Shown piece after piece: positions 41,847 through 64,000 of a stretch of DNA of 64,000 nt. Both the position numbers and the translations under genes were made by a program. Location: assembly GCF_019039035.1 (NCBI RefSeq), contig NZ_JAHNZT010000001.1:62001-126000 (forward strand). Reading direction: 5' to 3'. Under the pieces are notes generated by a model. It was not told where the DNA came from. It was given only the letters and a program-made list of their open reading frames with translations, and did no database searches. This DNA is from Citreicoccus inhibens (GTDB taxonomy: Bacteria; Myxococcota; Myxococcia; Myxococcales; Myxococcaceae). Each line of letters opens with the position of its first letter. Position 1 is the first letter of the stretch.

Positions 41847-42103
41847 GCCTCAGTCCTCCCGCGCTTGGAACGAAACGGGCAAGGGTGGAGCACGGGCAGG
41901 GGGGCTTGCGGCAACACCCGGGGTCTGGCATCTGCTGACAGTGGAGAGCGCGGTTGCCCTACGGAGTCACCTTCGGGGCGCCCATTTTCTCAGCCCCCAA
42001 TTCCTGAGAGGGATAGGCCCACGCAAGCGGCCACCCGACCTCTTGATTCGCCGGGCGGTTTCTTCTAACCGAGCCAGATCAACCGTCTCTTCCAGGGAGT
42101 GTG

Positions 42104-43279: not shown

Positions 43280-45025
43280 ATGAGCGAGCCACTCAGCACA
43301 TTGCGAGCAGACCTGTTCCTGCTGCACGCGCCGAGTGTCTATGATTTCCGCGACCGGGACGACGTGCTGTTCGCCTATCTGAGCGACTCCGACAGCGTCA
43401 ACGTCACGTCCATCTACGAGATGTATCCGATTGGCTTCCTCGCGCTGAAGGAGCACCTGCGCGCGCACGGCCTCTCGGTGGACATCGTCAACGTGGCGGC
43501 GCTGATGCTCCAGCACCCGGCGCTGGACGTGGACCGGCTCCTGGAGCGGCTGGAGGCCCCGGTCTTCGGCGTGGACTTGCACTGGCTGGCGCACGGCCAC
43601 GGCGCCATCGAGCTGGCGGGCCGAATCAAGCGAGCCCATCCCGAGGCGATCATCCTCTGCGGAGGAATCTCCGCCACGTATTACGCGGAGCAGCTCATCC
43701 AGTACCCGGCCATTGACGTCGTGGTGCAGGGCTACGACACGCTGGAGCCCACGCGGCGGTTGGTCGAGCGCATCCAGCGCGGTGAGCGGAACCTGGAGGG
43801 CATCCCCAACCTCCTGTTCAAGCGCCAGGGCCGCATCGAGCGCACCGGCTTCGCGCACAAGCCCGCCCGCGACTCCAACGACGCCACGGTGGACTGGGGC
43901 TTCTACCGGGACGCCCCCGGCGACGTGGCCGCGACGCGGCTCATCATGACGCTGCCCAACACCGGGTGCGCGTATGACTGTGGTTGGTGTGGAGGATCGC
44001 GCTCGGCGTTCCGTCAGGTCATGGGCGTCAAGAAGACGCTCATCCCGAAGCACCACCAGCGCGTCGTCGATGAGCTGCGCACCCTGGGCCCCACCGCCAC
44101 GCAGACGGGCATCTACGCGCTCCAGTGCTACTCGGAGACGCGCCCGCGCTTCCACGCGTATCTGGATGCAGTGCGCGAGGCCGGCTACCGCCAGCTCTTC
44201 GTCGAGCAGTTCCACCTCACGCCCGAGGACACGCTGCGGCGGATGGGTCAGGCCAGTCAGACCTACATCCTCTTGTCGCCCGAGTCGCATGACCCGGTCA
44301 TCAGCAAGCTGGCCGGGCGCGGGACGTACACGATGGAGCAGATGGAGGCGTGGATTCCGCGCGCGCTCGACGCGGGTATCGCGGGCGTCCTCATCTGGTT
44401 CTTCCTCGGGATGCCCCAGCAGACGCCGCAGTCCATCTCCGACACAGTGGACTACTGCATCGGCCTCCTGGAGCGCTTTCCGGGCCGGCGTGTGCTGCCC
44501 CTGCTGTGTCCCATGGTGCCATTCCTGGACCCGGGCTCGCGCTTCTTCGAGGACCCCGAGCCCCATGGCTATCGCCTCTTCCACCGCACGCTGGAGGAGC
44601 ACCGGCGCGCCTTGGTGGAGCCGCTCTGGCATCGGCGGCTGAACTACGAGACGCGCTGGCTGTCACGGCGCCAGCTCCAGGACGCCACGTACGGCGCGGT
44701 GGCTCGCCTCGTGGAAGCCAAGGGACAGGCGGGCGTGCTCCCTCGCGGCGTGTGCCAGGGAATCCTCTCCGCCATCTCCGAAACCGAGACACTGCTCGGT
44801 GAGATGGAACAAGCGCTGACGCGGGATGGTGCGCTGACCGCTCCGCTGCGCGACGACATCCGCGCGTACAACCGGCGCGTCCTGTCGCACTCGAGCGACC
44901 AGATCGTGCCCCTCCCCCGCCCCTTCGGAGGTCGCTGGTTCGACGACTTCACCGTGCCCGCGTCAATGCTGGCGCAGCTGCAAGGGAAGGCCTTCCACGC
45001 GGCGCGCGCCCAAGGAGAAGGCTGA
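43280..45025 (+). CDS. cobalamin-binding-type radical SAM protein, first gene of the biosynthetic operon
   Basis: 581 residues. N-terminal B12-binding-like Rossmann domain about residues 45-160 (YEMYPIGFLALKEHLRAHGL, FGVDLHWLAHGHG, IILCGGISATYYAEQL). The radical SAM [4Fe-4S] motif CAYDCGWC (CxxxCxxC, about residue 230) is preceded by MTLPNTGC and followed by barrel segments with FVEQFHLTPEDTLRRMG and ILLSPESHDP. The opening LLHAPSVYDFR and EMYPIGF recall the Ta0216 (TIGR04190-like) family, from memory. Only three bases separate it from the next gene, so it is co-transcribed with the proline-oxidising set. The reaction is unknown; methylation at an unactivated carbon or another radical step is inference. 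Confidence 0.85.
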   Translation: MSEPLSTLRADLFLLHAPSVYDFRDRDDVLFAYLSDSDSVNVTSIYEMYPIGFLALKEHLRAHGLSVDIVNVAALMLQHPALDVDRLLERLEAPVFGVDLHWLAHGHGAIELAGRIKRAHPEAIILCGGISATYYAEQLIQYPAIDVVVQGYDTLEPTRRLVERIQRGERNLEGIPNLLFKRQGRIERTGFAHKPARDSNDATVDWGFYRDAPGDVAATRLIMTLPNTGCAYDCGWCGGSRSAFRQVMGVKKTLIPKHHQRVVDELRTLGPTATQTGIYALQCYSETRPRFHAYLDAVREAGYRQLFVEQFHLTPEDTLRRMGQASQTYILLSPESHDPVISKLAGRGTYTMEQMEAWIPRALDAGIAGVLIWFFLGMPQQTPQSISDTVDYCIGLLERFPGRRVLPLLCPMVPFLDPGSRFFEDPEPHGYRLFHRTLEEHRRALVEPLWHRRLNYETRWLSRRQLQDATYGAVARLVEAKGQAGVLPRGVCQGILSAISETETLLGEMEQALTRDGALTAPLRDDIRAYNRRVLSHSSDQIVPLPRPFGGRWFDDFTVPASMLAQLQGKAFHAARAQGEG

Positions 45026-45028
45026 GCC

Positions 45029-46174
45029 ATGGACTTCGCGTGGGCGCCCGAAGACGCGCGGATGAAGTCGGACGCCGCCGCGTTCGGCCGCGAGCGCCTC
45101 GCCTTCGACGTGGGGGCGTTGGACCGCGACGGGACCTTCAATCACGAGGGCTGGCGGCGGGCCGCGGAGTTCGGCGTGCTCGGCCTTTCCCTCCCGCGTC
45201 GCTACGGAGGCGCCGAGCGGCCGCTGCTCACCACCGTCCAGGCGATGGAGGGCTTGGGGCTGGGGTGCACAGACAACGGCCTCTGGTTCGCGTTGGGCGC
45301 GCACCTGTGGGCGTGCGCGTGGCCCATCCTCCTGGTGGGCACGGAGGAGCAGAAGGAGCGCTACCTGCCCTCGCTGGCCCGCGGGGTGCGCGTGGGCAGC
45401 CACGCGATGACCGAGCCGGAGGCGGGCTCGGACGTGGCGGCGCTGCGCACGACGGCCACCCGGCGCGGAGCGGGCTATGTCCTCCAGGGCCGCAAAATCT
45501 TCGTCACCAACGGGCCCGTCGCGGACCTGACCGTGGTCTTCGCGACGGTGGACCCCGCGCGGGGACGCGAAGGTCTGACGGCCTTCCTGGTGGAGCGTGG
45601 GCAACCGGGCCTCCACCTGGAGCGCACGGTTTCGAAGATGGGGCTCAGGACCGCGAGCATGGGCGAGCTGCGGCTGGACGGCTGCGAGGTTCCGGTGTCA
45701 CAGCGCCTGGGTGAAGAGGGCGCGGGCCTGCCCTTGTTCGCGCAGCTCATGGAGTACGAGCGCGGCCTCATCCTCGCCCCGGCGCTCGGCGTGATGGAGC
45801 GAATCCTGGAGCGCTGCGTGCGCCACGCGCGCGAGCGTCGGCAGTTCGAGCGGCGCATCGGCGACTTCCAGGCCGTGTCCACCAAGCTGGTGGAGATGCG
45901 GCTGCGCCTGGAGACAGCGCGCGGGCTGCTGTACCGCTTCGCGTGGCTCAAGCAGCAGGGCCGCAGCGCGATGTTGGAAGCATCGCTGGTGAAGCTCCAC
46001 GTGAGCGAGGCCTGGGTGCAGACGTGCCTGGACGCGATGCAGGTCCACGGCGGCCAGGGCTACCTCACGGAGACGGGGTTGGAGCGGGAAGCGCGCGATG
46101 CGCTGGGGAGTCGCATCTTCTCCGGCACCTCGGAGATCCAGCGAGACCTCGTGGCTCGGATGATGGGCCTCTGA
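45029..46174 (+). CDS. acyl-CoA-dehydrogenase-like flavoprotein, predicted prolyl-S-carrier oxidase (PltE-like)
   Basis: 381 residues, the normal length. FAD and substrate motifs of the family: HAMTEPEAGSDVAALRTTA (about residue 130), RKIFVTNGPVADLTVVFA, the flavin-binding HARERRQFERRIGDFQAV and the C-terminal GGQGYLTETGLEREARDALGSRIFSGTSEIQRDLVARMM. With the proline-specific ligase and free carrier protein that follow, it fits the PltE/RedW-type enzyme that oxidises prolyl-S-carrier twice to pyrrolyl-2-carboxyl-S-carrier. Sequence alone would allow other acyl substrates; context makes proline most likely. It follows the radical SAM gene by three bases. Confidence 0.88.
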   Translation: MDFAWAPEDARMKSDAAAFGRERLAFDVGALDRDGTFNHEGWRRAAEFGVLGLSLPRRYGGAERPLLTTVQAMEGLGLGCTDNGLWFALGAHLWACAWPILLVGTEEQKERYLPSLARGVRVGSHAMTEPEAGSDVAALRTTATRRGAGYVLQGRKIFVTNGPVADLTVVFATVDPARGREGLTAFLVERGQPGLHLERTVSKMGLRTASMGELRLDGCEVPVSQRLGEEGAGLPLFAQLMEYERGLILAPALGVMERILERCVRHARERRQFERRIGDFQAVSTKLVEMRLRLETARGLLYRFAWLKQQGRSAMLEASLVKLHVSEAWVQTCLDAMQVHGGQGYLTETGLEREARDALGSRIFSGTSEIQRDLVARMMGL

Positions 46175-46193
46175 CGAGGCGAGAGGGGGACGC

Positions 46194-47759: not shown

Positions 47760-47840
47760 GTCCGCCCCGATGACGCAGGTTCAACTCACGGGTCGATGAC
47801 CCGACGGGCGTGCCATGCCCAGAAGCCGGAGTGAACGCCA

Positions 47841-48140
47841 GTGAATCAGACAATCGGGGACTTTACCGAGGAGCAGGTCGCTCGAATCATCCGCGACCAC
47901 ATCGACCAGGAGTTCCTCTTCCGCTCGCGCGACGCGGGGCTGACCGAGGAGGACAGCCTCATCTCTCGCGGGGTCATCGACTCGATGGGGCTGTTCCGGC
48001 TCGTGAACTTCCTGGAGCGGCGCTTCGCCATCTGCGTCAGCCCGCCGGACATCGTCATGGACAACTTCCGCAGCCTGCAGGCTATCCGCGTCTTCACCCT
48101 CGCCCGGCTGCGCGCCAGGGCCTGCGCGGAGCAATGCTGA
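47841..48140 (+). CDS. free peptidyl carrier protein (PltL-like)
   Basis: 99 residues. The phosphopantetheine site is the Ser in GVIDSMGLFRLVNFLE (about residue 50), with the preceding LTEEDSLISRG and C-terminal helices as in type II carriers. It is placed directly after the proline ligase and overlaps the next gene. It is predicted to carry prolyl- then pyrrolyl-2-carboxyl thioester. A 4'-phosphopantetheinyl transferase is not encoded in the window. Confidence 0.9.
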   Translation: MNQTIGDFTEEQVARIIRDHIDQEFLFRSRDAGLTEEDSLISRGVIDSMGLFRLVNFLERRFAICVSPPDIVMDNFRSLQAIRVFTLARLRARACAEQC

Positions 48141-49948
48141 TGCAAGCCGACGTCTGGAGGGCCTTCCAGCGGCTGCACGCCCTGCGCTCCGCCGCGCCAC
48201 CGCTGGTGCGCGGCACGCGCCAGGGAGGCACGCGCGCGTCGTTCGCGCAGGAGCGCCTGTGGTACCTGGACCAGGCCAATCCCGGGGGCACTGCGTACCA
48301 CCTGCCTGTCGCGTTCCGCATGGAAGGGGCGCTGGACACGCGCGCGCTGCGGCTGGCGCTGGAGACCATCGAGCATCGTCACGAGGCCCTCCGCACCTCG
48401 TTCGATTCGAGCCGGGGTCTGGTCGTTCAGCGCGTGCGCCCTCCCGGCGCGTTCCGAATGTCGAGCGTGTCGCTGCGCGAGTTGGAGCCGAGCCAGGAGG
48501 GCTTCGCCGCGAGACTCCAGGAGGCGCTGGCACGCGAGGCATGGCGCCCGTTCGACCTGCTGAGGGATCCGCTGTTCCGGGCGACGCTGTTCGAGCTGCG
48601 GGATGACGACCACGTCCTGCTGCTCAACTTCCACCACATCATCTACGACGGCTGGTCACAGGACGTGCTGTTCCGCGAGGTGTCCGCCCTCTACGACGCG
48701 TTCCGGCTGAAGCGACCGTCTCCCCTGTCCGAGCTGACCATCCAGTGCGCGGACCACGCGCGATGGCAGCGGTCATGGCTGCGAGGCCGCGTGCTGGAAG
48801 GACTGCAAGACCACTGGCGCAAGTGCCTGTCGAGCCGCCTGCATGGGCCTCGGTTGCGCGTGGGCCGTCCCGACGCGGCGACCTCGCACGCACGAAGCCG
48901 CGAGCTGGGCGTGTTGCCGCTGCGCTTGCCCGCGCCCCTGGCCTCGGCGGTCCTCCACATGACCCGCGAGGCGGGCGTCACGGTCTTCATGACGCTGCTG
49001 GCCGCGTTCCAGGTGTTGTTGCATCGATACTCGGGCAATCAGCCCAAGCTGTTCGTGTGCAGCCCCATCGCCAATCGCCAGCGCAGCGAGGTGGAGCCGC
49101 TCATCGGCTACTTCACCAACCTGCTCGTGCTGCCCACGGACCTGCGCGGAGACCCGAGCTTCCACCAGGTGCTGGAGCAGGCAAGGGGCATGGTGTCGGG
49201 CGCGCTGGCGCATCAGGACCTGCCAGTGCAGCTCATGGACGGGTTGGACCTGGGCAATGAGCCCCTGTCGCAGGTCCTCTTCTCCTACGAGAACACGCCG
49301 CGCCATCCGCTGACGCTGTCGGAGCTGCGCATCCGCCCGGTGGAGCTGTCCGGAGGGACGTGCGACTTCGACCTCTTCCTCGCGCTGCACGAAGACGGCG
49401 GCGACATCGCGGGCACGCTCAAGTACTCGCGCCACTTGCTGGACGATGCGGATGCGGTGCGCTTGCTGGAGGACTTCCTGGCCGTACTGAGCCAGGCGAT
49501 GGCCGCTCCCGAGCGGCACGCGTCCGAGTTCCTGCCGACGTGCCCCGCGGGCATCGAGTCCCCGCGCGAAGCCGACGTGCCGTCCCGAAGGCCCGCGGCC
49601 GCGACGGCGGACCTGCTGGGTGGACTGCGCGCGGCGGGCCCCGAGCGGCGCAAGGCGCTCTTGCGCGAGTACCTCCACGAGACGCTCGTGCGGGTGGCGC
49701 TGCGTGGGCAGCGGCCGGAGCAGCCCATCCACTCGCTCCAAGAGCTGGCGCTCGACTCGCTCCGGCTCATCGAGTTGACCGGGCGCATCCGCACGGAGCT
49801 GTCCATCGACATGCCCGTGTCGCGGTTCTTCGAGGCGACGAGCCTGGAGGTGCTGGCCGACGAGCTGCTGGCCCGTTGGCTGCGCGCCCAGGTCTCCGAG
49901 ACTCGGCCCGAGGCGACGGGGACGGGCCGCGAGTTCGTCACGCTGTAA
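48134..49948 (+). CDS. NRPS condensation-carrier didomain protein without adenylation domain
   Basis: 604 residues from ATG 48134 (or ATG 48140, which abuts the carrier stop as TGATG). C domain about 30-450: SFAQERLWYLDQANPGG (C1), HRHEALRTSF (C2), catalytic NFHHIIYDGW (HHxxxDG, about 165), VCSPIANRQRSEVEPLIGYFTNLLVLP (C5-like) and HQDLPVQLMDGL. PCP about 510-580 with LALDSLRLIELTGRIRTEL (Ser attachment about 541). No A domain. It could transfer the pyrrolyl group from the free carrier to its own PCP, or use an amino acid loaded in trans. The C domain is of the ordinary amide-forming type, not Cy. Confidence 0.9.
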   Translation: MLMQADVWRAFQRLHALRSAAPPLVRGTRQGGTRASFAQERLWYLDQANPGGTAYHLPVAFRMEGALDTRALRLALETIEHRHEALRTSFDSSRGLVVQRVRPPGAFRMSSVSLRELEPSQEGFAARLQEALAREAWRPFDLLRDPLFRATLFELRDDDHVLLLNFHHIIYDGWSQDVLFREVSALYDAFRLKRPSPLSELTIQCADHARWQRSWLRGRVLEGLQDHWRKCLSSRLHGPRLRVGRPDAATSHARSRELGVLPLRLPAPLASAVLHMTREAGVTVFMTLLAAFQVLLHRYSGNQPKLFVCSPIANRQRSEVEPLIGYFTNLLVLPTDLRGDPSFHQVLEQARGMVSGALAHQDLPVQLMDGLDLGNEPLSQVLFSYENTPRHPLTLSELRIRPVELSGGTCDFDLFLALHEDGGDIAGTLKYSRHLLDDADAVRLLEDFLAVLSQAMAAPERHASEFLPTCPAGIESPREADVPSRRPAAATADLLGGLRAAGPERRKALLREYLHETLVRVALRGQRPEQPIHSLQELALDSLRLIELTGRIRTELSIDMPVSRFFEATSLEVLADELLARWLRAQVSETRPEATGTGREFVTL

Positions 49949-49985
49949 GGCGACAGGGCGCCGCGCGCGCTTGGGGGGAGAGGTC

Positions 49986-51149
49986 ATGAGCTATCAAGCC
50001 GATGCCTGGGTCATCGAAGCGGGTGAGGTGGGACGTCCGGGCCGCGCGCGCCTGAAGCGCACGCGCGTCACCGTGGAGTCCATCCGCGACGACGAGGTCC
50101 TCGCAGCGCCGGTGTGTGGCTGCTGGGAGGGCAACACCGAGCACGCGCTGGCGCGCACGCCCATCGACATCTGCCGGGCCCGGCGCGAGCCCCAGGTCGT
50201 GCTGGGCAACGCGGGCGTGGTGCGCGTGCTGGAGACGGGCAAGGCCGTCACGCAGGTGCGCACGGGGCAGCTCGCGATGATGTTCCCCAGCGGAGAGACG
50301 GACGCGTACGGCTACACCGTCAAGGCGCTCGGCTACGAGGCGCCGGGGCAGATGGGCTGCATGGCCACGCTCATGAAGCTGCGCGGCGCGCAGCTCATCC
50401 CCGTGCCGGAGAACTCGCGCCACACGCCCGCGCAGTGGGCCGCGTTCAGCGTCCGCTACGTCACCGCGTGGGCGAACTGGCGGCTGGCCTCGGCGGTCTT
50501 CCGACTCCAGGTCCCCGAGGAGGAGTGCCCCACCCCGCAGGCCTGGGGCTGGGGGGGCGGGACGACCCTCGCCGAGCTGACCCTGGCCAAGGCTCAGGGC
50601 TGGCGGGCCGTCATGCTGTCCGGCTCGCCGCACCACCTGGATGAGATCCAGCGCGCGGGGTTGGAGGCCATCGACCGGAACACCTTCGGGCGGCTGAGCC
50701 ACGAGCCACACCGCGTGGAGACGGACCTCGACCATCGCCACGCCTATCAGCAAGCGGAGACGGCCTTCCTCGCCGAGGTCGCGCGCCGCACCGAGGGCGC
50801 GATGGTGCACGTGTTCCTCGACTACATCGGCACGCCCGTCCACCGGGCCACGCTCCGGGCGCTGGCGCGCCAGGGCGTGCTCGCCACCGCGGGCTGGAAG
50901 GAGGGCATGGAGCTGACGCTGCTGCGCGCGCGGGAGTGCATCACCCGCCACCAGCACATCCACACCCACTTCGCGCGCTACCAGGAAGGACTGGACGCGG
51001 TGGCCTATGGCGAGGCCATGGGCTGGATGCCGCAGGTGGACAGCCGGCTGTACGGGTTCGACGAGCTGCCGGCGCTCGCCGATGACTACCACCGAGGCGC
51101 GACGGGGTACTTCCCCTGCTTCCTCGTCAACGCGGAGGAGTGGACATGA
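49986..51149 (+). CDS. MDR-superfamily oxidoreductase (crotonyl-CoA-reductase/quinone-reductase-like)
   Basis: 387 residues from ATG 49986, behind GGGGAGAGG. GroES-like N-terminal domain (ARREPQVVLGNAGVVRVLETGKAV) and a nucleotide-binding domain with the glycine-rich AWGWGGGTTLAELTLAKAQGWRAVMLSG (about residue 185). The structural-zinc Cys quartet of alcohol dehydrogenases is absent; the GGGTTLAELTLAKA block is like crotonyl-CoA carboxylase/reductases. Its role is probably NAD(P)H-dependent reduction of an enoyl or carbonyl thioester in trans, since the downstream module has no ER domain. It overlaps the NRPS start as ATGA, so it is part of the operon. Confidence 0.85.
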   Translation: MSYQADAWVIEAGEVGRPGRARLKRTRVTVESIRDDEVLAAPVCGCWEGNTEHALARTPIDICRARREPQVVLGNAGVVRVLETGKAVTQVRTGQLAMMFPSGETDAYGYTVKALGYEAPGQMGCMATLMKLRGAQLIPVPENSRHTPAQWAAFSVRYVTAWANWRLASAVFRLQVPEEECPTPQAWGWGGGTTLAELTLAKAQGWRAVMLSGSPHHLDEIQRAGLEAIDRNTFGRLSHEPHRVETDLDHRHAYQQAETAFLAEVARRTEGAMVHVFLDYIGTPVHRATLRALARQGVLATAGWKEGMELTLLRARECITRHQHIHTHFARYQEGLDAVAYGEAMGWMPQVDSRLYGFDELPALADDYHRGATGYFPCFLVNAEEWT

Positions 51150-54100: not shown

Positions 54101-57100
54101 GTGGACAAGCCCGGCGCCGCGCTGGGCGCGGAGACGTTGCGCGCCCATCTCCAGGAGCGGCTCGCGGAGCACATGGTCCCCGCGGTCTTCGTCTTCCTGG
54201 AGCGATTCCCCCTGGGCCCCACCGGGAAGGTGGACCGCGCGGCGCTCCCCCGGCCCGAGACCGCGCTTCCCTCCCCTGCGCCTCGGGGTCCCGAAACCAG
54301 CGCGGCGCCCCCTGACGTCGAGGAGGCCTTGGCGGAGCTCGTTCGGGACGAACTCCGCGTCCCTGCGGTGGACCGGCGTCGCAGCTTCTTTGAACTGGGC
54401 GCCAACTCCGTGCACCTGGTGCGCATCGCCGCGCGCATCCGTCGCGAGCTGGGCGTGGACATTCCCACCGCCGAGCTGTTCCAGAACGCGAACCTGGCGG
54501 CGTTGGCCGCGCACCTCGGACGCGCGCGGCGGGGCGAAGCGGGAGCGCCCGCGGCCCGCGTCCTGGAAGCCCGCGCGAGCGCCCTGGAGCGCGGCCCCAT
54601 CGCCATCATCGGAATGAGCGCACGGCTCCCGGGCGCTCCCGATGTCGAGACGTACTGGCGCAACCTCACCGGCGGCGTCGAGTCCGTGCGCTTCTTCACC
54701 GACGAGGAGCTGCTCAACGAGGGCCTCGCGCGGGAGTTGTTGCAGGACTCGCGCTACGTGAAGGCGGGCGCCGTGCTGGAGGACATCGCGGGCTTCGACG
54801 CGGGGTTCTTCGGCCTCACGGCGCGGGAGGCGGTGCTGACGGATCCGCAGCACCGCCTGTTCCTCGAGTGCGCCTGGGAGGCCCTGGAGCGCTCGGGCTA
54901 TCGCCCGGACGCCACGGGGAAGAAGGTCGGCGTGTTTGGTGGCAAGAGCATGGGCCACTACCTCACCCCTGCCTTGGACCTCTCCCAGCCGCTGCCCTAC
55001 TTCCAGCGGCTGTTTGGCAACGACAAGGACTTCGTCGCCACCCAGGTCTCCTACAAGCTCCACCTCACGGGTCCGAGCATCACGCTCCAGACCGCGTGCT
55101 CCACCTCGCTCGTGGCCGTGGCGCTGGCGTGCCAGTCGCTGTGGAACCGCGACTGCGAGATGGCCCTGGCGGGGGGCGTGTCCATCAAGGTCCCGCACCA
55201 CTTGGGGTACCTGTCCGAGCCGGACTCCGGGATGTTCTCGCCGGATGGGCACTGCCGCCCGTTCGACGCGCGCGCGCAGGGCATCCTCCCCGCGAGCGGC
55301 GCGGGCCTCGTGGTGCTCAAGCGGCTGGAGGACGCGCTCGCGGATGGGGACCACATCCACGCGGTCATCCTCGGGGCGGCGGTCAACAACGACGGCGGCG
55401 ACAAGGTGGGCTTCTCCGCGCCCAGCCGCGACGGGCAGGCGGAGGTCATCGCACGCGCCCAGGCCATGGCGGGCGTGGCACCCCACACGGTGCGCTACGT
55501 GGAGGCCCACGGCACCGGCACCCCCATGGGGGATCCGCTGGAGATCGCCGCGCTGACGCAGGCGTTCCGACTGGGGACCGAGGACACCGGCTTCTGCGCG
55601 GTGGGTTCATCCAAGTCCAACTTCGGCCACCTGGACACGGCCGCGGGCGTGGCCGGGCTCATCAAGGCCGCGCTCTCCATCGAGCGGGGCCTCATCCCGC
55701 CGACGCTCCACTTCGACACGCCCAACCCCGCCATCGACTTCGCGCGCACGCCCTTCTACGTCAACACGCACCTGCTGCCGTGGCCGGACGATGGCCATCC
55801 CCGTCGCGCGGGCGTGAGCTCGTTCGGAGTGGGCGGCACCAATGCCCACGTCATCCTCGAAGAGGCGCCCCGCCGCGTGCCCGAGCGGCTTCGCAGGAGG
55901 GACGCGACGCACCTGGAGCGCCCGCTGCACCTCTTGCCGCTCTCGGCGCGAAGCCCCAGCGCGCTTCAGGTCCTGTCCCGCCGCTTCGAGGACCTGCTGG
56001 CCGACGCGCCCGAGTCCGCGTTGGCGGACATCGGGTACACCGCGAGCGTCGTCCGCTCGCACCTGCCCCACCGGCTGGCCATCGTGGGCCGCACGCCTCG
56101 CGAGATGCGCGAGCAACTGCGCGCGGCGCGCGAGGGGCTGGCCGCGCCCGGCATCATGCGCGGCACCGCGGAGGGGACACCGCGCGTGGCGTTCCTGTTC
56201 ACCGGCCACGGCGCCCACCACCCCGGCATGGGGCGCGGGCTCTATGAGACACAGCCCGTCTTCCGTCGCGCGATGGAGCGCGTGGATGGCCTGCTGCGCC
56301 CGGAGCTGGACACGCCGCTCGTGGAGGTCCTCTATGGCAAGGAGGGCCGGCGCCTCGCGGAGGTCGCCTATGCGCAGCCCGCGCTGTTCGCCGTGGAGTA
56401 CGCGCTGAGCGAGGTCTGGCGCGCATGGGGCATCACCCCCGACGCGGTCCTGGGCCACAGCCTGGGCGAGTATGTCGCGGCCCTCCAGGCCGGTGTCTTC
56501 AGTCTCGAGGATGCGGTGCGGCTCGTCGCGGCGCGCGGGCGACTCATCGAGCAGCTGGGACTGGAGGGCGAGACGCTCGTGGTGCTCGCGGACGAGGCGC
56601 GGATCCGCGAGGCCGCCGCACCGTTCGGGACCCGGCTGGCGATTGCCTCGCTCAATGCGCCCGAGAACATCATCGTCTCGGGCGAGGGCCCCGCGGTGCG
56701 CGCGCTGGCGGAGGACCTGCGCGGCCGAGGCATCGAGACCAAACGGCTGGAGGCCTCTCGAGCCGCCCACTCGCACCTCATGGACCCCGTGCTGCCCGCG
56801 TTCGAGGACCTGGCGCGAGGCATCGCGTTCCAACCGCCCTGCGTTCCACTCGTGTCCAACCTCACGGGCCGCTGGGCGAGGCGAGAGGTCGCCTCGGCGC
56901 GGTACTGGGCTCGCCATCTGCGCGAGCCCGTGCGGCTCGCCGATGGCATGCGGGCGCTGGGCGAGCGAGGCATCCACGTCTTCTTGGAGCTGGGCCCCAA
57001 GCCCACGATGTTGTGGATGGGGCGCGAGTGTCTGCCCACGCAGCCCGCGTTGTGGTTGAGCAGCCTGCGACAGGGACATGACGATTGGCGCCAGATGCTG

Positions 57101-59971
57101 GAGTGCCTGGGCGCCCTGCACAGCCGAGGCGCGCCGGTGGACTGGCGAGGCTTCGAGCAAGGACGTGCCCGCCGTCGCGTGGTGCTGCCCACGTACCCCT
57201 TCGAGCGTCAGCGCTACTGGGCGGACGAGGCTGGAGCACGCGCCGGGCCAGCACGCGTGGGGCACCCGCTGCTCGGCGCACGCGTGGAGTCCGCCGCGTT
57301 GCGGCCTGGGGAGCTTGTCTTCGAGTCTCGCCTGGGCATCACGACGCCGGCCTACCTGGGTGACCACCGCGCCCGCGGCACCGCGCTGCTGCCCGCCACC
57401 GCACACGTCGAGCTGCTGCTCGCCGTGGCCGCCGTGGCGCTGCCCGAGCGCGCACCCGTCATCGAGGAACTGCGGCTGGAACACGCGCTCGTGCTCCCCG
57501 AGCATGGCGAACTCACCGTGCAGGTCGTCGCGCGCCCACGCACCGACGCGGCCTTCGAGGTGGAGGTCTTCCGTCGCGAGGACCCTCCGGGGAGTGGCGC
57601 GACCTGGACGCGCCATGCCGTGGGGCTCCTTCGCGCCGCGCGCGCCGACGAGCAACCTCCCGCGCGCCTGGACACGGCACGCGCCAGCACAGGCGAGGTG
57701 GAGACCGGGGACACGCACTACGAACGGGCCCAGGCCCTGGGCATCACGTTCGGCGAGGCGTTCCGCGGCCTGCGCGAGCTGTGGCGCGACGACATGGGCG
57801 TGGGGGCGCGCATCGAGAGTCCCGCGTGCCTCACGGCAGAGTGCGCGCCCCACCATGTGCACCCCGCGGTGTTGGACGCCTGTCTCCAGCCCGTGGTCGC
57901 CATGGCGCCGCCACCCGCGCCAGGAGAGTGGTGGGTGCCCGCGCGCTTCGAGCGGGTGCGCGTGCACCACCTGCCCTTGCCCGCGCGCCTGGTGAGTCGC
58001 GTCACCCAGCGGACTCCGCTCATCGCGGACGTGGCGCTCTTCGACGAAGCGGGGAACGCGTACCTCAGCGTGGAGGGCTTCGAGCTGCGCAGGACGCGCG
58101 GCGATGCGCTCGTCCCCGAGGCCCGTCCGGGGTTGGCCGAGGCGTTGTACGAACCCGGCTGGCGAGAGCAGGCGCGCCCCGTGCGCGAGGTCGTGCCTCC
58201 GCCTTCCACGTGGCTCATCCTCGCGGACGACCAGGGCCTCGGCGAGACGCTGGCGACGCAGTTGGAGGAGGCTCGCGAGTCCTGCATCGTCGCCCATGCG
58301 GGTGTGGGGTATGCGCGGCGAGGCCCACGACAGTTCCAGGTGGACCCCTCGCGCCCCGAGGACTTCACGCGGCTGCTCGATGAAGCCGTGCCTCCCGGAC
58401 GTCCGTTGCGGCAGGTGCTGTACCTGTGGGCGCTCGATGCGCCCGCGCCCGCCGGGCTGCAAGCCGAGGGGCTCGCGCGGGCGAGCGTGCGCATCTGCGG
58501 CGGAGCGTTGCATCTCGTGCAGGCGCTCACCGGACGCAGCGACGCGCCTCCCGCGCTTCACTTCGTCACGCGCGGCACGCGGGGCACGGACGTCGGACTC
58601 CAATCCGCGTTGTCGGGGCTGGGACAGGTCATCGCCCTGGAGCACCCCGAGCTGGGATGCCGGTGCGTGGACCTTGCCCCGGGGAGTGGCCTGGAGGCGT
58701 GCACGGAGCTGCTCGCCGAGGTGCGTTCGGGCAGCCTGGAGGCGCAGGTCCAGCTCGACGCGGGACGCCGCCGCGTGGCACGCCTGCGCCCCGCCGAGGC
58801 CCTGGGCTCGCCCGAGTTCCTTCGCCCCGACGCGACCTATCTCATCACGGGCGGCTTTGGCCGACTGGGACAGCTCGTCGCCCGCGCGATGCTGGAGCGC
58901 GGCGCACGGAACCTCGCACTGCTCGGGCGACGTGTCCCGCCGCGAGGCAGCGAAGGGCTCGCGGCGCTTCAGGCCACCGGCGCGAACGTCGTGCTCCTGG
59001 AGGCGGACGTCTCCAAGCCGCGCTCGCTCGCCGCCGCGGTGGATGGCGTGCGGCGCGCGATGCCTCCCTTGCGCGGGGTCATCCACGCGGCGGGCACCGT
59101 GTTGGACGGCCCCGTGCAGACGCAGTCCTGGGAAGCCTTCGCGAGCGTGCTGGCGCCCAAGGTCCAAGGCGCGTGGAACCTCCACCGCGCGACGCAGGGC
59201 GTGGAGTTGGACTTCTTCATCCTCTTCGCGTCCGTGGCGTCGCTGCTCGGCAACGCGGGGCAGGCCAGCTACGCGGCGGCCAACTCCTTCTTGGATGGAC
59301 TGGCCCGACACCGACGCTCGCTAGGACTTCCCGCGCTGAGCATCGCGTGGGGCCCCTGGTCCGATGAGGGCGCCGCGGCGGGTGAGGCCACCGCGGAGCG
59401 CCTCCGTCGTCAGGGGCTCGGACTGTTCTCACCCGCGCAGGGGCTCGCGGTGCTGCATCGCCTGTGGAGCCATCCCCACGCGCAGGTGGCCGTGGCCCCC
59501 ATCGACTGGAAGCCCTTCCTCACGACCCACGCTTCGACGTTCTTCGCGGACATGTCACTCCAGGTCGAGGCGCCGCGACGCGCGGGCGCCGCGAGGCTCC
59601 TCCAGCGCCTGGAGGCAATGCCCCCCTCGGAGCGGCATCCGCTGCTCCGCGCGCACGTGAGGGAGCAGGTGGCGGCGGTCCTTGGACTGGCGCCCTCGGC
59701 GGTCGGGATGGGGCGCGGCCTCTTCGACCTGGGGCTCGACTCGCTCGGCTCGTTGGAGATCCGCAATCGGTTGCAGGCCTCGCTCGCGTGCGACCTCCCC
59801 TCCGTCGTGGTGTTCAAGCATCCCAGCGTCGAGCAGCTCGCCACCTACCTGGCCACCGAGGTGCTCCGGATGGATCCACAGACGCTCGCCGGAGAACCTG
59901 GGACCGCGCAGGAGCCTCCCTTGGAGGAAGTCATCCGGCGACTGGAGCGGAAGCTGGAGGACCTGGGCTGA
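51146..59971 (+). CDS. hybrid NRPS-PKS: TubC docking-Cy-A-PCP-KS-AT-DH-KR-ACP
   Basis: 2941 residues from ATG 51146 (RBS GGAGGAG at 51134-51140). TubC-like docking domain about 8-55 (FDLGIRLWIEDGKLAID). Cyclisation domain about 78-510: LTDIQQAYWVGR, DxxxxD motif in DCTFVDSWS. A domain about 535-1030: IPTSGSTGRPQG, HHDMSLFDVF; pocket by eye D-M-F-N-F-G-V-L-W, closest to Cys/Thr/Ser types. PCP about 1085 (LGANSVHLV). KS about 1150-1570 (TACSTS, EAHGTGT, NFGHLD). AT about 1680-1970 (GHSLGEY; substrate motif RAAHS instead of HAFH). DH about 2038-2310 (DHRARGTALLP, HPAVLDACLQ). KR about 2560-2740 (TGGFGRLG, SYAAAN). ACP about 2862 (LGLDSL). No oxidase, ER or TE. Predicted product step: pyrrolyl-azoline, then one double bond. 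Confidence 0.95.
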   Translation: MRPVDGGVTALLTRVFDLGIRLWIEDGKLAIDAPHGALTAELREALAEHKAEVLALLEHGQGDARAAELPALLSRPRERHLPFPLTDIQQAYWVGRGGDVELGAAIHVYVEIDSATLEPERLGAAWRQLIQRHEMLRAVATPDGSQRILAQVPAYEVAVEDYRALPTEERERRLAAHRQRLEHQVLPLDTWPLFELRAVRLEDGHRLFFSLDCTFVDSWSVQILFRELMQCYATPDARLDPPEHRASFRDYVLATQALPETERYRRSREYWRERIGTLPPAPDLPRVPRARGARRPRFVRREARLERPRWEQLVQRARELQLTPTGLLLACYAEVLAHFSKSPHFTLNVPLYNRLPLHEDVGKMVGTFSSFLLVEVDHRAGGSFQERARALQAQLFRDLEHRDIGGVEVLRQLFRERGGISGALMPVVLTSFASGVEGWDSCWVDHLGRALGRVVHSVTQTPQVWIDHQLVFQDGGVFFNWDSADELFAPGLLDAMFAAYQGLLERLVTEPDVVREQPLRLTAPRVAAGPRRDSLGTDALLHTRFVEQALANPERLAVIAPERTLTHGELLARATALANQLSREGARRNHPVAVVMEKGWEQVVATVAASLAGAPYLPIDAGAPRERRWRLLADGGCELALTQPWLDAQLEWPEGVQRLPVTAGPAAPVHRDDVPVSAQGPDDLAVIIPTSGSTGRPQGVMLAHRGLVHALDETLREFQVGPEDRVLALTALHHDMSLFDVFGMLSAGGAIVLCEPAARKEPSRWAQLLRRERVTVWNSVPGMMEMLLAHAQERPEALAPTLRLAFLGGDWIPLSLPERLRALVPGVQPVSVGGPTETSLWNIWYRIGAVEPDWASIPYGRPIADTRYHVMDEALRERPVWVPGELCCAGVGVAQGYWRNPERTRERFVTHPVTGERLYRTGDLGRLLPDGNIEILGRVDFQLSILGHRVEPGEIEAALRAHPQVEGAVVVADGDRHAPRLVAYVVDKPGAALGAETLRAHLQERLAEHMVPAVFVFLERFPLGPTGKVDRAALPRPETALPSPAPRGPETSAAPPDVEEALAELVRDELRVPAVDRRRSFFELGANSVHLVRIAARIRRELGVDIPTAELFQNANLAALAAHLGRARRGEAGAPAARVLEARASALERGPIAIIGMSARLPGAPDVETYWRNLTGGVESVRFFTDEELLNEGLARELLQDSRYVKAGAVLEDIAGFDAGFFGLTAREAVLTDPQHRLFLECAWEALERSGYRPDATGKKVGVFGGKSMGHYLTPALDLSQPLPYFQRLFGNDKDFVATQVSYKLHLTGPSITLQTACSTSLVAVALACQSLWNRDCEMALAGGVSIKVPHHLGYLSEPDSGMFSPDGHCRPFDARAQGILPASGAGLVVLKRLEDALADGDHIHAVILGAAVNNDGGDKVGFSAPSRDGQAEVIARAQAMAGVAPHTVRYVEAHGTGTPMGDPLEIAALTQAFRLGTEDTGFCAVGSSKSNFGHLDTAAGVAGLIKAALSIERGLIPPTLHFDTPNPAIDFARTPFYVNTHLLPWPDDGHPRRAGVSSFGVGGTNAHVILEEAPRRVPERLRRRDATHLERPLHLLPLSARSPSALQVLSRRFEDLLADAPESALADIGYTASVVRSHLPHRLAIVGRTPREMREQLRAAREGLAAPGIMRGTAEGTPRVAFLFTGHGAHHPGMGRGLYETQPVFRRAMERVDGLLRPELDTPLVEVLYGKEGRRLAEVAYAQPALFAVEYALSEVWRAWGITPDAVLGHSLGEYVAALQAGVFSLEDAVRLVAARGRLIEQLGLEGETLVVLADEARIREAAAPFGTRLAIASLNAPENIIVSGEGPAVRALAEDLRGRGIETKRLEASRAAHSHLMDPVLPAFEDLARGIAFQPPCVPLVSNLTGRWARREVASARYWARHLREPVRLADGMRALGERGIHVFLELGPKPTMLWMGRECLPTQPALWLSSLRQGHDDWRQMLECLGALHSRGAPVDWRGFEQGRARRRVVLPTYPFERQRYWADEAGARAGPARVGHPLLGARVESAALRPGELVFESRLGITTPAYLGDHRARGTALLPATAHVELLLAVAAVALPERAPVIEELRLEHALVLPEHGELTVQVVARPRTDAAFEVEVFRREDPPGSGATWTRHAVGLLRAARADEQPPARLDTARASTGEVETGDTHYERAQALGITFGEAFRGLRELWRDDMGVGARIESPACLTAECAPHHVHPAVLDACLQPVVAMAPPPAPGEWWVPARFERVRVHHLPLPARLVSRVTQRTPLIADVALFDEAGNAYLSVEGFELRRTRGDALVPEARPGLAEALYEPGWREQARPVREVVPPPSTWLILADDQGLGETLATQLEEARESCIVAHAGVGYARRGPRQFQVDPSRPEDFTRLLDEAVPPGRPLRQVLYLWALDAPAPAGLQAEGLARASVRICGGALHLVQALTGRSDAPPALHFVTRGTRGTDVGLQSALSGLGQVIALEHPELGCRCVDLAPGSGLEACTELLAEVRSGSLEAQVQLDAGRRRVARLRPAEALGSPEFLRPDATYLITGGFGRLGQLVARAMLERGARNLALLGRRVPPRGSEGLAALQATGANVVLLEADVSKPRSLAAAVDGVRRAMPPLRGVIHAAGTVLDGPVQTQSWEAFASVLAPKVQGAWNLHRATQGVELDFFILFASVASLLGNAGQASYAAANSFLDGLARHRRSLGLPALSIAWGPWSDEGAAAGEATAERLRRQGLGLFSPAQGLAVLHRLWSHPHAQVAVAPIDWKPFLTTHASTFFADMSLQVEAPRRAGAARLLQRLEAMPPSERHPLLRAHVREQVAAVLGLAPSAVGMGRGLFDLGLDSLGSLEIRNRLQASLACDLPSVVVFKHPSVEQLATYLATEVLRMDPQTLAGEPGTAQEPPLEEVIRRLERKLEDLG

Positions 59972-62900
59972 TGCGCGCGCCCTCTTCCACCTCGACCTCC
60001 GAGGCCCTGCTGCGCCGCGCGCTGCGCGCGTTGGAGCAAACGGAGTCGCGGCTGCGCGCCCTCGAGAACGGGCGCCACGAGCCCATCGCGATCGTCGGCA
60101 TGGGCTGTCGCTTCCCGGGAGGCGTGTCGAGCCCCGAGTCCTTCCGCGCGCTGCTCGCCAGCGGCAGGGACGCGGTGACGGACGTTCCTCGCGAGCGCTG
60201 GGGCGTGGATGCACTGCACGCCCCGGAGCTGGATGTTGCTGGGATGCCCGTCACGCGACGCGGGGCGTTCATCGACGGCGTGGAGCACTTCGACGCGGCA
60301 TTCTTTGGCATCAGCCCGCGCGAGGCCGACCGGATGGACCCTCAGCAGCGGCTGCTGCTGGAGGTGAGCTGGGAGGCCCTGGAGCGCGCCGGCATCCCCC
60401 CCAGCGCGCTCGCGGGCAGTCGCTCGGCCGTGGTGATGGGGGTGGCGAGCCACGACTACTTCGGGCTGTCCACGCAAGCGCCCGAGGACATCGATGCCTA
60501 TACGGGTTCCGGCACGGCGTTGAGCGTGGCCGCGGGGCGGCTGGCCTATGTGCTGGGACTCCAAGGGCCGGCGTTCACGGTGGACACGGCGTGCTCCTCC
60601 TCACTGGTCGCGGTCCATCTCGCGTGCCAGGCGCTGCGCCATGGGGAGTGTGACCTGGCGCTCGCGGGAGGCGTGAGCCTGATGCTCACCCCCGTGCTCG
60701 CGATGATTGAGTCGCGCACGCGGATGCTGGCGCCGGATGGGCGGTGCAAGACCTTCGACGCGGCGGCGGACGGGGTGGTTCGCGGCGAGGGCTGCGGCGT
60801 GGTGGTCCTCAAGCGCTGGGAGGATGCGCGACGCGCGGGAGACCCGGTGCTCGCGCTCATCCGAGGCTCGGCCGTGAATCAAGACGGTCGCAGCGCGGGG
60901 CTCACCGTGCCCAACGGCGCCGCGCAAGAGGCCGTCATCCGCGCCGCGCTGGAGGCGGCCCGGGTGGCACCGGAGCACATCGGCTATGTGGAGGCGCACG
61001 GCACCGGCACCGCGCTCGGAGACCCCATCGAGGTCGAGGCGCTGGGCGCGGCGCTGACCCGAAACCACTCGGGCCGGGCCCCGCTGTGGGTCGGCTCGGT
61101 GAAGCCGAACATCGGCCACCTGGAAGCGGCGGCGGGCATCGCCGGGCTGATGAAGCTGGTCCTCGCCCTGGAGGATGGAGTCCTCCCCCCTCACCTGCAC
61201 TGCCAGACACCCAACCCGCGCATCCCCTGGACCGCGTTGGGTGTGCGCGTGGTGAGCGAGCCCACGCCCTGGCCCGTGCTCGGTGGCCGTCGCGTGGGCG
61301 GCGTCAGCGCGTTCGGGTTCTCGGGAACCAACGCGCACGTGGTGGTGGAGCAGGCCCCCTCGGCGCCAGAGGACACCTCGGGAATGTCGCGGCCCTGGAG
61401 CCTCATCACGCTGTCGGCCACGACGCCGGAGTCACTCGACGCGCTCGTCGCGCGGCACCGCTCCCATCTGGAGACACACCCCGCGCGCTCCCTGCGCGAT
61501 GGCGCGACCACGCTCCACTCGGGGCGCGCGCACTTCCGACACCGGTTCGCCTGCGTGGCGCGGACCCCGGAGGAGCTGGTGCGCAAGCTGCGCGCCCGCG
61601 ACGCCCTGGAAGCCGTGGCGAGCGACGAGCCTCCGCGAATGGCCTTCCTGTTCAGCGGGCAGGGCGGACAGTACGCGGGCATGGGGCGCGAGCTGTATGA
61701 GACAGAGCCCCACTTCCGCGACGCGCTGGACCGCTGCGCCGCGGGGCTGGCGCAGCGCATGGAAGCACCGCTGCTCGAAGTCCTCTTCGACAGCAGGGGC
61801 GACACGCTGTCACGCACCGCGTGCGCCCAGCCCGCGCTGTTCTCGCTCCAGTACGCGCTCGCGGCGCTGTGGCGCTCGCTGGGCATCGAGCCCATCGCGG
61901 TGTTGGGCCACAGCGCGGGGGAGTTGGCCGCCGCGTGCATCGCGGGCGTGTTCTCCCTGGAGGATGGGCTGATGCTGGCCGCCGAGCGCGGTCGGCTCAT
62001 GCAAGACCTCACTGAAGCCGGACGCATGGTGGCCGTCTTCGCCGAGCCCGAGCGCGTCGAGCGCGCCGCGTCCGCCCACGCCGGCCGGCTGGCCATCGCA
62101 GCGCGCAATGGGCCGCGCCATGTCGTCATCTCGGGAGAGCGGGCAGCCGTGAGCGCGGTGCTCGGCGCCCTGCACGCGGAGGGAGTCGAGTCACGCGGGT
62201 TGGAGGTCTCCCATGCGTTCCACTCGCCGCTGATGGAGCCCATGCTGGCGCGCTTCGCGGCCGTGGCCGAGCGCGTGCGCTACAGCCCGCCGCGGCACTC
62301 CTTCGTGTCCACCGTCACGGCCAAGGCGGTGAGCGCGGAGCTGACCGAGGCCCGATACTGGGTCGACCACATCCGCCAGCCCGTGCGCTTCGCCGAGGCG
62401 CTGAGCGCCCTCACGCGCGAGGACATCACCGCGTTCCTGGAGTTGGGACCGGGAACCACGCTGACCGAGCTGGCCCGTGGCCTGTTGCCTTCGTCCGCGG
62501 CGCCGTTGCTCCCCAGCCTCCGCCGTGACCACTCCGAGTCGCGGCGTCTCCTGGAGAGCCTGGGCGCGCTGTACGTCCAAGGCGCGCCCGTGCGCTGGGC
62601 CGGGCTGGAGGCGGGTGCGCCAGGGCGCCGCGTCGCGCTCCCGACCTACCCCTTCGAGCGCCGCCGCCACTGGCTCCCCACCGCGCGGACGCCCTTCACC
62701 GTCCCTCCGCGCAGCGCGGCCTCGGAGGCTTCACCCGAGCACCCGTTGCTCGGGCGCCGCCTGGGCTCGCCCGTGCACGGGCGCGATGAGCTGCACTTCG
62801 AGGCACACCTGGGCACGGCTTCGCCGCCCCTGCTCGGACAACACCGCGTCTTCGGTCGCGCCGTGTTCCCCGCCACCGCATTCATCGAGCTGGCACTCGC

Positions 62901-64000
62901 CGCTGGCGCGCAGGCCTTCCGCACCGAAGCCCTGCGCGTGGAAGGGCTGGAGCTCACCCATCCCCTGCTCCTCCCCGACGAAGGCACCCTCCGCGTCCAC
63001 ACCGTGGTGGATCCCGTGGAGGACGACCAGCGAGCGGTCCGTGTCTTCAGCCAGGGAGAGGGCGACAGCGAGACATCCGCCTGGCGCCTGCACATGAGCT
63101 GCGCGGTGCGCCGCGAGGAGGAGCCCCGTCCCGAACGCCGCGCGAGGCCGGGCACGTCGGGAGAGGCGCGGCTCGACATCGAGGCGCATCACCAGCGCAC
63201 CCGCGAGCACGGCCTGGAGCTGGGCCCCCTCTTTCGCGCCCTTCAATCCCTGTGGCGCACACCGCGCGGAGGGGCCGCGCATGGGGTCCTCCCGCCCTTC
63301 ACGGAGCGCTATGTCCTGCACCCCGCGTTGCTCGACGTCTGCCTCCAGTCCCTGAGCGTGGGCTTCGGCGCGGCCGTGGAGGGTGAGGCGTTCCTGCCGG
63401 TGAGCGTGCACCGGCTCACGGTGCACGAGCCGCCCCACGCGGAGGCCTACTGCGAGGCCCAGCCGGGGCCGGTCTCCGACGAGGGTCGGCTGCGCGTCGA
63501 CGCGCGGCTGGTCGCCGGAGATGGGCGCGTGCTCGTCACCGTGGAGGGACTGGAGCTGCGCCGCGCGCGCCGAGAGGCCGTGCTGGGCGGGCTCGCCTCC
63601 GCGGACTGGCTCTACGCCGTGGAGTGGAGACCCGCGCCCCGAGGCGAGCGAAGCGCCGACTTCATCCCGCGCCCTGCCGACGTGGCCACGGCCCTGGAGC
63701 CTCGCCTCGCGACCTTGGTCTCTCCCGCTGAGACCAGGGCCTACGAGGACGTCCTGATCCGACTGGAGACGATGAGCCTGGGCTTCATCCACGCGGCGTT
63801 CCATCGAATGGGGGCGGACTTTCGCCCCGGGCAGCACCTCGGCACGAGTGAGCTCGCGACACGGCTCCAGGTCGTCCCCTCGCAGCGTCGGTTGTTCGGG
63901 CGAATGCTGCACATCCTCGGCGAGGAAGGCCTCTTGGAGCGCGTCGGCATGGGCTGGCGCGTGCGACACGTCCTGCCGGATACACCCTGGCATCCCTCCC
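59971..64000 (+). CDS. type I PKS, KS-AT-DH-(C-methyltransferase), 3' end outside window
   Basis: 1343 codons, starting at an ATG that overlaps the previous stop (TGATG). A helical N-terminal docking stretch ([25 protein letters not shown], residues 9-33) suits class 1-like PKS docking. KS about 38-460: TACSSS (206), EAHGTGT (341), NIGHLE (383). AT about 555-850: GHSAGEL, and SHAFHS predicting malonyl. DH about 920-1200: [21 protein letters not shown]. After VEWRP (1216) comes [20 protein letters not shown] and [18 protein letters not shown], the helical start of a PKS C-methyltransferase. KR and ACP are expected beyond the edge. It extends the chain by a methylated unit and possibly acts iteratively. 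Confidence 0.95.

What the first reader, a model, noticed from the sequence alone, without database searches (positions are those of the whole stretch)
43280..64000. DKxanthene-like pyrrolyl-azoline polyene cluster, possibly with new decorations
Pyrrole starter, a Cy-A-PCP module for Ser/Thr/Cys, then DH- and KR-containing PKS modules predict a pyrrole-oxazoline (or thiazoline) joined to a polyene, which is the DKxanthene scaffold. A B12-type radical SAM gene, an A-less C-PCP protein and a free MDR reductase in the same operon are not explained by that scaffold.
Basis: partly seen in the sequence, partly recalled or inferred. Interest (0 to 1): 0.75.

Follow-up and report, generated by a model that had tools for sequence, protein, structure and literature searches.

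The report
Uncharacterised proline-azoline-polyene cluster, not DKxanthene
This is a rare, complete and undescribed myxobacterial gene cluster that probably builds a small molecule from an oxidised proline, an azoline ring and a methylated four-double-bond chain; it resembles the DKxanthene pigment cluster in one central enzyme, but it is a different cluster and the same genome carries a separate DKxanthene-type one.

Summary
The operon starts at 43280 and runs past the window end to about 80220 on the contig. It encodes: B12-radical SAM; prolyl-carrier dehydrogenase; proline A domain; a free PCP (missed, overlaps the next ORF); C-PCP; a crotonyl-CoA-carboxylase/reductase-like MDR; TubC_N-Cy-A-PCP-KS-AT-DH-KR-ACP; three more PKS modules, two with C-methyltransferase; and a free terminal TubC_N-C. 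It is not the DKxanthene cluster: a separate cluster with DKxanthene-type architecture lies on contig C31 of the same genome. It is a distant sister that shares the azoline-PKS hybrid protein (48% identity; closest relatives after direct orthologues). The dehydrogenase groups with anatoxin AnaB (two-electron, pyrroline), not with pyrrole formers, so the 'pyrrole' starter is doubtful. Best prediction: dehydroproline- or pyrrole-azoline-dimethyltetraene acid, released as an amide or ester by the terminal C domain. Intact clusters occur in at least 3 of 195 Myxococcota genomes (host, one congener, Myxococcus qinghaiensis); a fourth (M. llanfair...) runs off its contig. At the ffh locus other Myxococcus species keep progressively eroded remnants, including a five-gene starter cassette still under purifying selection. 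Products and tailoring roles are untested.

The parts
43280..45025 (+). B12-binding radical SAM enzyme (581 aa), CxxxCxxC at residues 230-237; present only in the four genomes that carry the PKS part
   Evidence: Pfam B12-binding and Radical_SAM; TIGR04190 378.9 bits, below cut-off 500; 4 of 195 Myxococcota genomes
45029..46174 (+). acyl-CoA-dehydrogenase-type prolyl-carrier oxidase, AnaB-like
   Evidence: closest solved structure 4irn (prolyl-ACP dehydrogenase), 473 bits vs 310 for 6cxt and 282 for 5zw0; groups with AnaB, support 0.992; 18 AnaB-specific residues
46194..47759 (+). stand-alone adenylation domain, proline-specific code DLLYLALVCK
   Evidence: same code as the DKxanthene-type proline A domains; solved L-proline ligase 6o6e 353 bits
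   Evidence: overlaps the 712-aa ORF in another frame; conserved in all five-gene cassettes
48134..49948 (+). C-PCP protein without A domain; C motif HHIIYDG intact; C-terminus REFVTL
   Evidence: Pfam Condensation and PP-binding; tail shared with proteins upstream of TubC_N proteins
49986..51149 (+). free MDR protein, divergent crotonyl-CoA carboxylase/reductase (CCR/ECR) relative
   Evidence: profile hit to CCR 4gi2 E 6e-11; AlphaFold pLDDT 87; Foldseek best hits are CCR/ECR structures
51146..59971 (+). hybrid TubC_N-Cy-A-PCP-KS-AT-DH-KR-ACP; Cy motif DCTFVD, A code DMFNFGVLWK
59971..64000 (+). 5' part of PKS2 (KS-AT-DH-cMT-KR-ACP, ends at contig position equivalent to 66573); followed outside the window by PKS3, PKS4 and TubC_N-C to 80220

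Best explanation
A complete, self-contained NRPS-PKS assembly line distinct from DKxanthene. Proposed route: (1) the stand-alone A domain loads L-proline on the free PCP [strong inference]; (2) the AnaB-like flavoenzyme oxidises it there, more likely to a pyrroline by two electrons than to a pyrrole by four [inferred from clade, about 55:45]; (3) the C-PCP protein takes over the acyl group, or adds one further trans-loaded residue, and hands it through its C-terminal docking tail to the TubC_N domain of the hybrid protein [inferred; extra residue undecided]; (4) the Cy-A-PCP part condenses and cyclises Ser, Thr or Cys to an azoline; (5) four malonate extensions with KR and DH, two of them C-methylated, give an azolinyl-CH=CH-CH=C(Me)-CH=CH-CH=C(Me)-CO chain on PKS4; (6) PKS4 docks to the free terminal C domain, which releases the chain onto an amine or alcohol. 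The B12-radical SAM enzyme (only in genomes with the PKS part) is proposed to modify the azoline/chain part, most simply by C-methylation. The CCR-like MDR travels with the proline cassette and is proposed to act on a carrier-bound starter intermediate rather than to supply extender units. Shown here: domains, motifs, relatives, loss pattern. Inferred: every chemical step.
For: Domain content. Proline code identical to DKxanthene-type A domains. AnaB grouping and signature residues. Own DKxanthene-type cluster elsewhere in the genome. Gene-for-gene intact cluster in one congener and in Myxococcus qinghaiensis, and its first part up to the contig end in M. llanfair..., about 60-95% identical. 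Docking: of 576 predicted genes in the held regions only 8 end in the ELTL/LLTL/FVTL-type tail, each the closest upstream NRPS/PKS protein of a TubC_N protein. Malonyl-type motif (HAFH) clear in three ATs, probable in the first. The MDR stays with ACAD-A-PCP-CPCP in genomes without rSAM or PKS, with dN/dS 0.06-0.16 among them.
Against: No metabolite is known. KR catalytic Tyr is His in both C-methylating modules, so those positions could stay keto, although a DKxanthene-type hybrid KR carries the same His. DH motif of PKS3 has D for G. DKxanthene and this A domain share a code, so a pyrrole is not excluded. The docking pattern was chosen after seeing the tails, and most hits are orthologues. 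The rSAM model was too poor to use.
Confidence: 0.6

Rival explanations
1. It is a DKxanthene-type cluster making a shortened pyrrolyl-oxazoline polyene pigment with extra decorations.
For: Same proline A code, hybrid protein next-closest to DKxanthene-type hybrids, Ser/Thr/Cys Cy module, polyene-type modules.
Against: Separate cluster of DKxanthene-type architecture in the same genome; dehydrogenase from another clade; different start, terminus and accessory genes; only 48% identity of the hybrid and 51% of the dehydrogenase.
Confidence: 0.25
2. The free C-PCP inserts a second residue (for instance a second proline loaded by the same A domain) so that the starter is a dipeptide.
For: C domain has an intact HHxxxDG motif in all four PKS-bearing genomes and its PCP is intact; only one stand-alone A domain is available.
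Against: In the remnant cassettes examined the motif is HRxxxDD yet the gene stays under purifying selection, so a non-condensing role is also possible.
Confidence: 0.3
3. The MDR is a CCR that makes an unusual alkylmalonyl extender unit for one of the PKS modules.
For: CCR fold and aligned N50, Y117-E118 and H328 at positions that I recall as the CO2-binding residues of CCRs; paralogues lie beside PKS genes in other clusters.
Against: ATs carry malonyl-type motifs; the MDR is retained in cassettes that have lost all PKS genes.
Confidence: 0.15
4. The cluster is already non-functional in this host.
For: Orthologous loci in Myxococcus are decaying.
Against: All genes of the host copy are intact without stops and the host/congener copies show dN/dS 0.08-0.15 in the genes measured; catalytic motifs are mostly intact.
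Confidence: 0.07

Closest known systems
DKxanthene cluster (BGC0000986; conserved in Myxococcus and Stigmatella, PMC12766979)
   Same: stand-alone proline A domain with identical code, prolyl-carrier dehydrogenase, and a TubC_N-Cy-A-PCP-KS-AT-DH-KR-ACP hybrid that is the nearest relative outside direct orthologues
   Different: dehydrogenase of another clade; no PKS modules before the Cy module; rSAM, C-PCP, MDR and free terminal C have no counterpart; no terminal C-A-PCP; host carries a separate DKxanthene-type cluster
Anatoxin-a starter enzymes AnaB/AnaC/AnaD (PMC3252866)
   Same: A domain, carrier and dehydrogenase on proline; the dehydrogenase is in the AnaB clade with shared signature residues
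   Different: followed by a Cy azoline module, C-PCP and MDR, which the described anatoxin pathway does not have; no evidence that the product is related to anatoxin
Pyrronazol cluster of Nannocystis (halogenated pyrrole-oxazole-pyrone, PMC4902002)
   Same: pyrrole/proline starter placed directly before an azole, then polyketide
   Different: no halogenase among the eleven genes here; direct sequence comparison was not possible
Crotonyl-CoA carboxylase/reductases (CinF, AntE, ECR)
   Same: fold; candidate CO2-pocket residues aligned
   Different: 18-20% identity, 45 bits against an NCBIfam cut-off of 379; linked to a proline cassette

Membership tests
DKxanthene cluster | proline A domain plus prolyl-carrier dehydrogenase starter | tested here: met
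   but the dehydrogenase itself is not in the DKxanthene clade
DKxanthene cluster | Cy-A-PCP-KS-AT-DH-KR-ACP hybrid | tested here: met
   same architecture, 48% identity full length
DKxanthene cluster | PKS extension proteins (KS-carrier, KS-KR) between starter and Cy module | tested here: not met
   none in the operon; present in C31, G096, G121
DKxanthene cluster | terminal C-A-PCP module | tested here: not met
   only TubC_N-C at 78700-80220; C31 has C-A-PCP
DKxanthene cluster | yellow polyene product absorbing near 410 nm | not testable with these tools
   needs culture extracts
AnaB-type prolyl-ACP dehydrogenase | groups with AnaB rather than with pyrrole-forming enzymes, catalytic Glu kept | tested here: met
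   support 0.992, 18 signature residues, YERG base motif
AnaB-type prolyl-ACP dehydrogenase | two-electron oxidation to pyrroline | not testable with these tools
   needs an in vitro assay
Crotonyl-CoA carboxylase/reductase | CCR fold | tested here: met
Crotonyl-CoA carboxylase/reductase | NCBIfam equivalog cut-off | tested here: not met
   45.3 against 378.55 bits
Crotonyl-CoA carboxylase/reductase | reductive carboxylation | not testable with these tools
   candidate pocket residues aligned only
B12-radical SAM, TIGR04190 | B12-binding and radical SAM domains with CxxxCxxC | tested here: met
B12-radical SAM, TIGR04190 | family cut-off 500 bits | tested here: not met
   378.9 bits
Pyrronazol cluster | halogenase | tested here: not met
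   no halogenase domain in the operon

The most novel reading that the evidence does not exclude
The dehydrogenase/CCR-like MDR pair works on the carrier-bound proline: the dehydrogenase makes an alpha,beta-dehydroprolyl thioester and the MDR reduces or reductively carboxylates it, giving a carrier-bound amino-acid building block not described so far, which the C-PCP then delivers; the five-gene cassette would be an independent starter factory that some Myxococcus species keep after losing the rest.
Probability: 0.08. Interest if true: 0.75.

Novelty: new variant of a known kind. Interest (0 to 1): 0.45.

Why it matters
It separates two proline-starter logics that can be confused in myxobacteria: a DKxanthene-type pathway and an AnaB-type one coexist in one genome, so automatic annotation as 'DKxanthene' would be wrong. 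It links a CCR-like reductase, an A-less C-PCP and a B12-radical SAM enzyme to one small assembly line whose product is short enough to isolate, and the series of eroded loci in Myxococcus shows which genes belong to the starter cassette.

Tried and rejected
First MDR alignment A1 contained reverse-strand loci and was redone. Extender-unit supply by the MDR: disfavoured by malonyl-type ATs and retention without PKS. Trans-enoyl-reductase of a split PKS module in the paralogous clusters: checked and not clear, since the MDR there follows a PKS ending in ACP-TE or ACP. Remnant cassettes as an independent ancestral unit: rejected as the simplest reading, because they occupy the ffh locus where M. 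qinghaiensis has the whole cluster and nest inside the full-cluster clade. rSAM structure model: pLDDT 46, not used. Cys versus Ser/Thr specificity of the hybrid A domain: left open (code DMFNFGVLWK). Literature searches found no matching described pathway in the open-access library.

Full report
Observation. The window is G000:C35:62001-126000 of a 9.05-Mb myxobacterial assembly. A free PCP gene at 47841-48140 overlaps the start of the long ORF that holds the C-PCP protein; the true C-PCP start is near 48134. The operon was followed on the contig to about 80220: PKS2 and PKS4 are KS-AT-DH-cMT-KR-ACP, PKS3 is KS-AT-DH-KR-ACP, and the last gene is a TubC_N docking domain plus a condensation domain. 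No thioesterase follows; the next gene is a LysR regulator on the other strand.

Not the DKxanthene cluster. A second prolyl-carrier dehydrogenase in the same genome (C31:144710) lies in a cluster with proline A domain, KS-carrier, KS-KR, Cy-A-PCP-KS-AT-DH-KR-ACP, two KS-AT-DH-KR modules and TubC_N-C-A-PCP. The same type of cluster is in G096, whose size of 10,260,756 bases matches Stigmatella aurantiaca DW4/3-1 from memory, and in most Myxococcus genomes, in agreement with the published conservation of the DKxanthene cluster in Myxococcus and Stigmatella (PMC12766979). That C31 is a DKxanthene cluster rests on architecture and on this distribution, not on a comparison with the MIBiG entry. 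The window cluster shares 51% (dehydrogenase), 44% (A) and 48% (hybrid) identity with C31, and lacks the modules that lie between starter and Cy there. In a scan of 195 Myxococcota genomes the Cy-A region matches four orthologues at 79-100% and then DKxanthene-type hybrids at 51-54%, before all other Cy modules. The hybrid is therefore a true sister of the DKxanthene-type hybrid; 'DKxanthene-like' is right for that protein and wrong for the cluster.

Starter. The stand-alone A domain has the code DLLYLALVCK, identical to the DKxanthene-type proline A domains. The dehydrogenase is closest to AnaB (4irn, 473 bits; 6cxt 310, 5zw0 282). In a FastTree phylogeny the cassette dehydrogenases group with AnaB (support 0.992), apart from the DKxanthene-type group, Bmp3 and the 5zw0 enzyme. 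Eighteen positions carry a residue common to AnaB and all eight cassette enzymes and absent from every presumed pyrrole former compared. AnaB makes (S)-pyrroline-5-carboxyl-AnaD (PMC3252866), whereas RedW, PltE and Bmp3 carry out the four-electron oxidation to pyrrole (PMC10849742). One two-electron enzyme in the tree is thin evidence; I put pyrroline at about 55%.

Assembly order. C-PCP ends in REFVTL (host) or RELLTL (Myxococcus), PKS4 in ITELTL, and the DKxanthene-type PKS before its TubC_N protein in VEELTL. Of 576 predicted genes in the held regions only eight end in such a tail, and each is the closest upstream NRPS/PKS protein of a TubC_N protein. The pattern was chosen after inspection and the hits are largely orthologous, so this is support and not proof. 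It places C-PCP before the hybrid, and PKS4 before the terminal C domain. ATs 2-4 carry the malonyl motif HAFH; AT1 has a variant (AAHS) read as malonyl-like. Both DH motifs are found in every module (PKS3 with D for G) and both cMT domains have a SAM motif. KR catalytic Tyr is His in the two cMT modules in all intact clusters; a DKxanthene-type hybrid KR (G121) has the same change, so inactivity is not implied.

MDR. No close solved relative was found by single sequence. The profile hits crotonyl-CoA carboxylase/reductase 4gi2 at 6e-11, the AlphaFold model has mean pLDDT 87, and the best Foldseek hits are CCR/ECR enzymes. In the alignment N50, Y117-E118 and H328 fall on the residues that I recall as the CO2-binding pocket of CCRs; this was not checked against a paper.

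Distribution and loss. The rSAM gene is found in 4 of 195 genomes: the host, a congener (G073), Myxococcus qinghaiensis (G123) and M. llanfair... (G120); the names come from contig identity. G120 runs off its contig inside the hybrid gene. In M. qinghaiensis the cluster ends with an additional Rieske oxygenase gene (read from the sequence) and lies directly upstream of ffh. At the same place upstream of ffh, G119, G128, G130 and G131 keep only dehydrogenase-A-PCP-C-PCP-MDR; G114 keeps A and C-PCP, G116 A and a C fragment, G117 A alone. The simplest history is an ancestral full cluster with stepwise loss. In the five-gene remnants G119, G128 and G130 the genes are intact and dN/dS is 0.06-0.22 for the four larger ones and 0.36-0.56 for the short PCP, although the C motif has changed from HHxxxDG to HRxxxDD and the A3 motif of G130 is altered. 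So the cassette may have kept a function of its own, but slow decay cannot be excluded.

Verdict. An undescribed (as far as the open-access library shows), complete variant of the proline-starter NRPS-PKS kind; product, oxidation state of the starter, azoline heteroatom, and the roles of C-PCP, MDR and rSAM remain open.

Noticed in passing
G119, G128, G130, G131, G114, G116, G117 upstream of ffh (L043-L048, L064-L066, L129-L130, L191-L197): Stepwise erosion series of this cluster at one locus in the genus Myxococcus, from a five-gene cassette to a lone proline A domain.
   Followed up: yes
L039-L041 (G123:C3), region positions 41851-42909: Rieske-type oxygenase gene appended to the cluster in M. 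qinghaiensis, absent from the host and its congener.
   Followed up: partly
L124-L125 (G033), L127 (G034), L122 (G060): Another minimal operon: prolyl dehydrogenase, proline A domain, carrier protein (seen in G033) and a hexapeptide-repeat (CysE-like) acyltransferase, with no PKS or NRPS module nearby; its dehydrogenase is sister to the AnaB group.
   Followed up: partly
L052-L054 (G138), L058-L060 (G094), L156-L157: A different PKS cluster with a Cy-A module in several genomes contains a paralogue of the CCR-like MDR directly after a PKS ending in ACP-TE.
   Followed up: partly
L043-L045 and L064 (G119, G128), beside the remnant cassette: ECF-type transporter genes adjoin the remnant proline cassette.
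   Followed up: no
L004:7618-15312 (window numbering 106618-114312) and L006:11425-19998: Two further large NRPS genes (three C, two A and two PCP domains each) about 26 kb and 70 kb downstream of the cluster.
   Followed up: no
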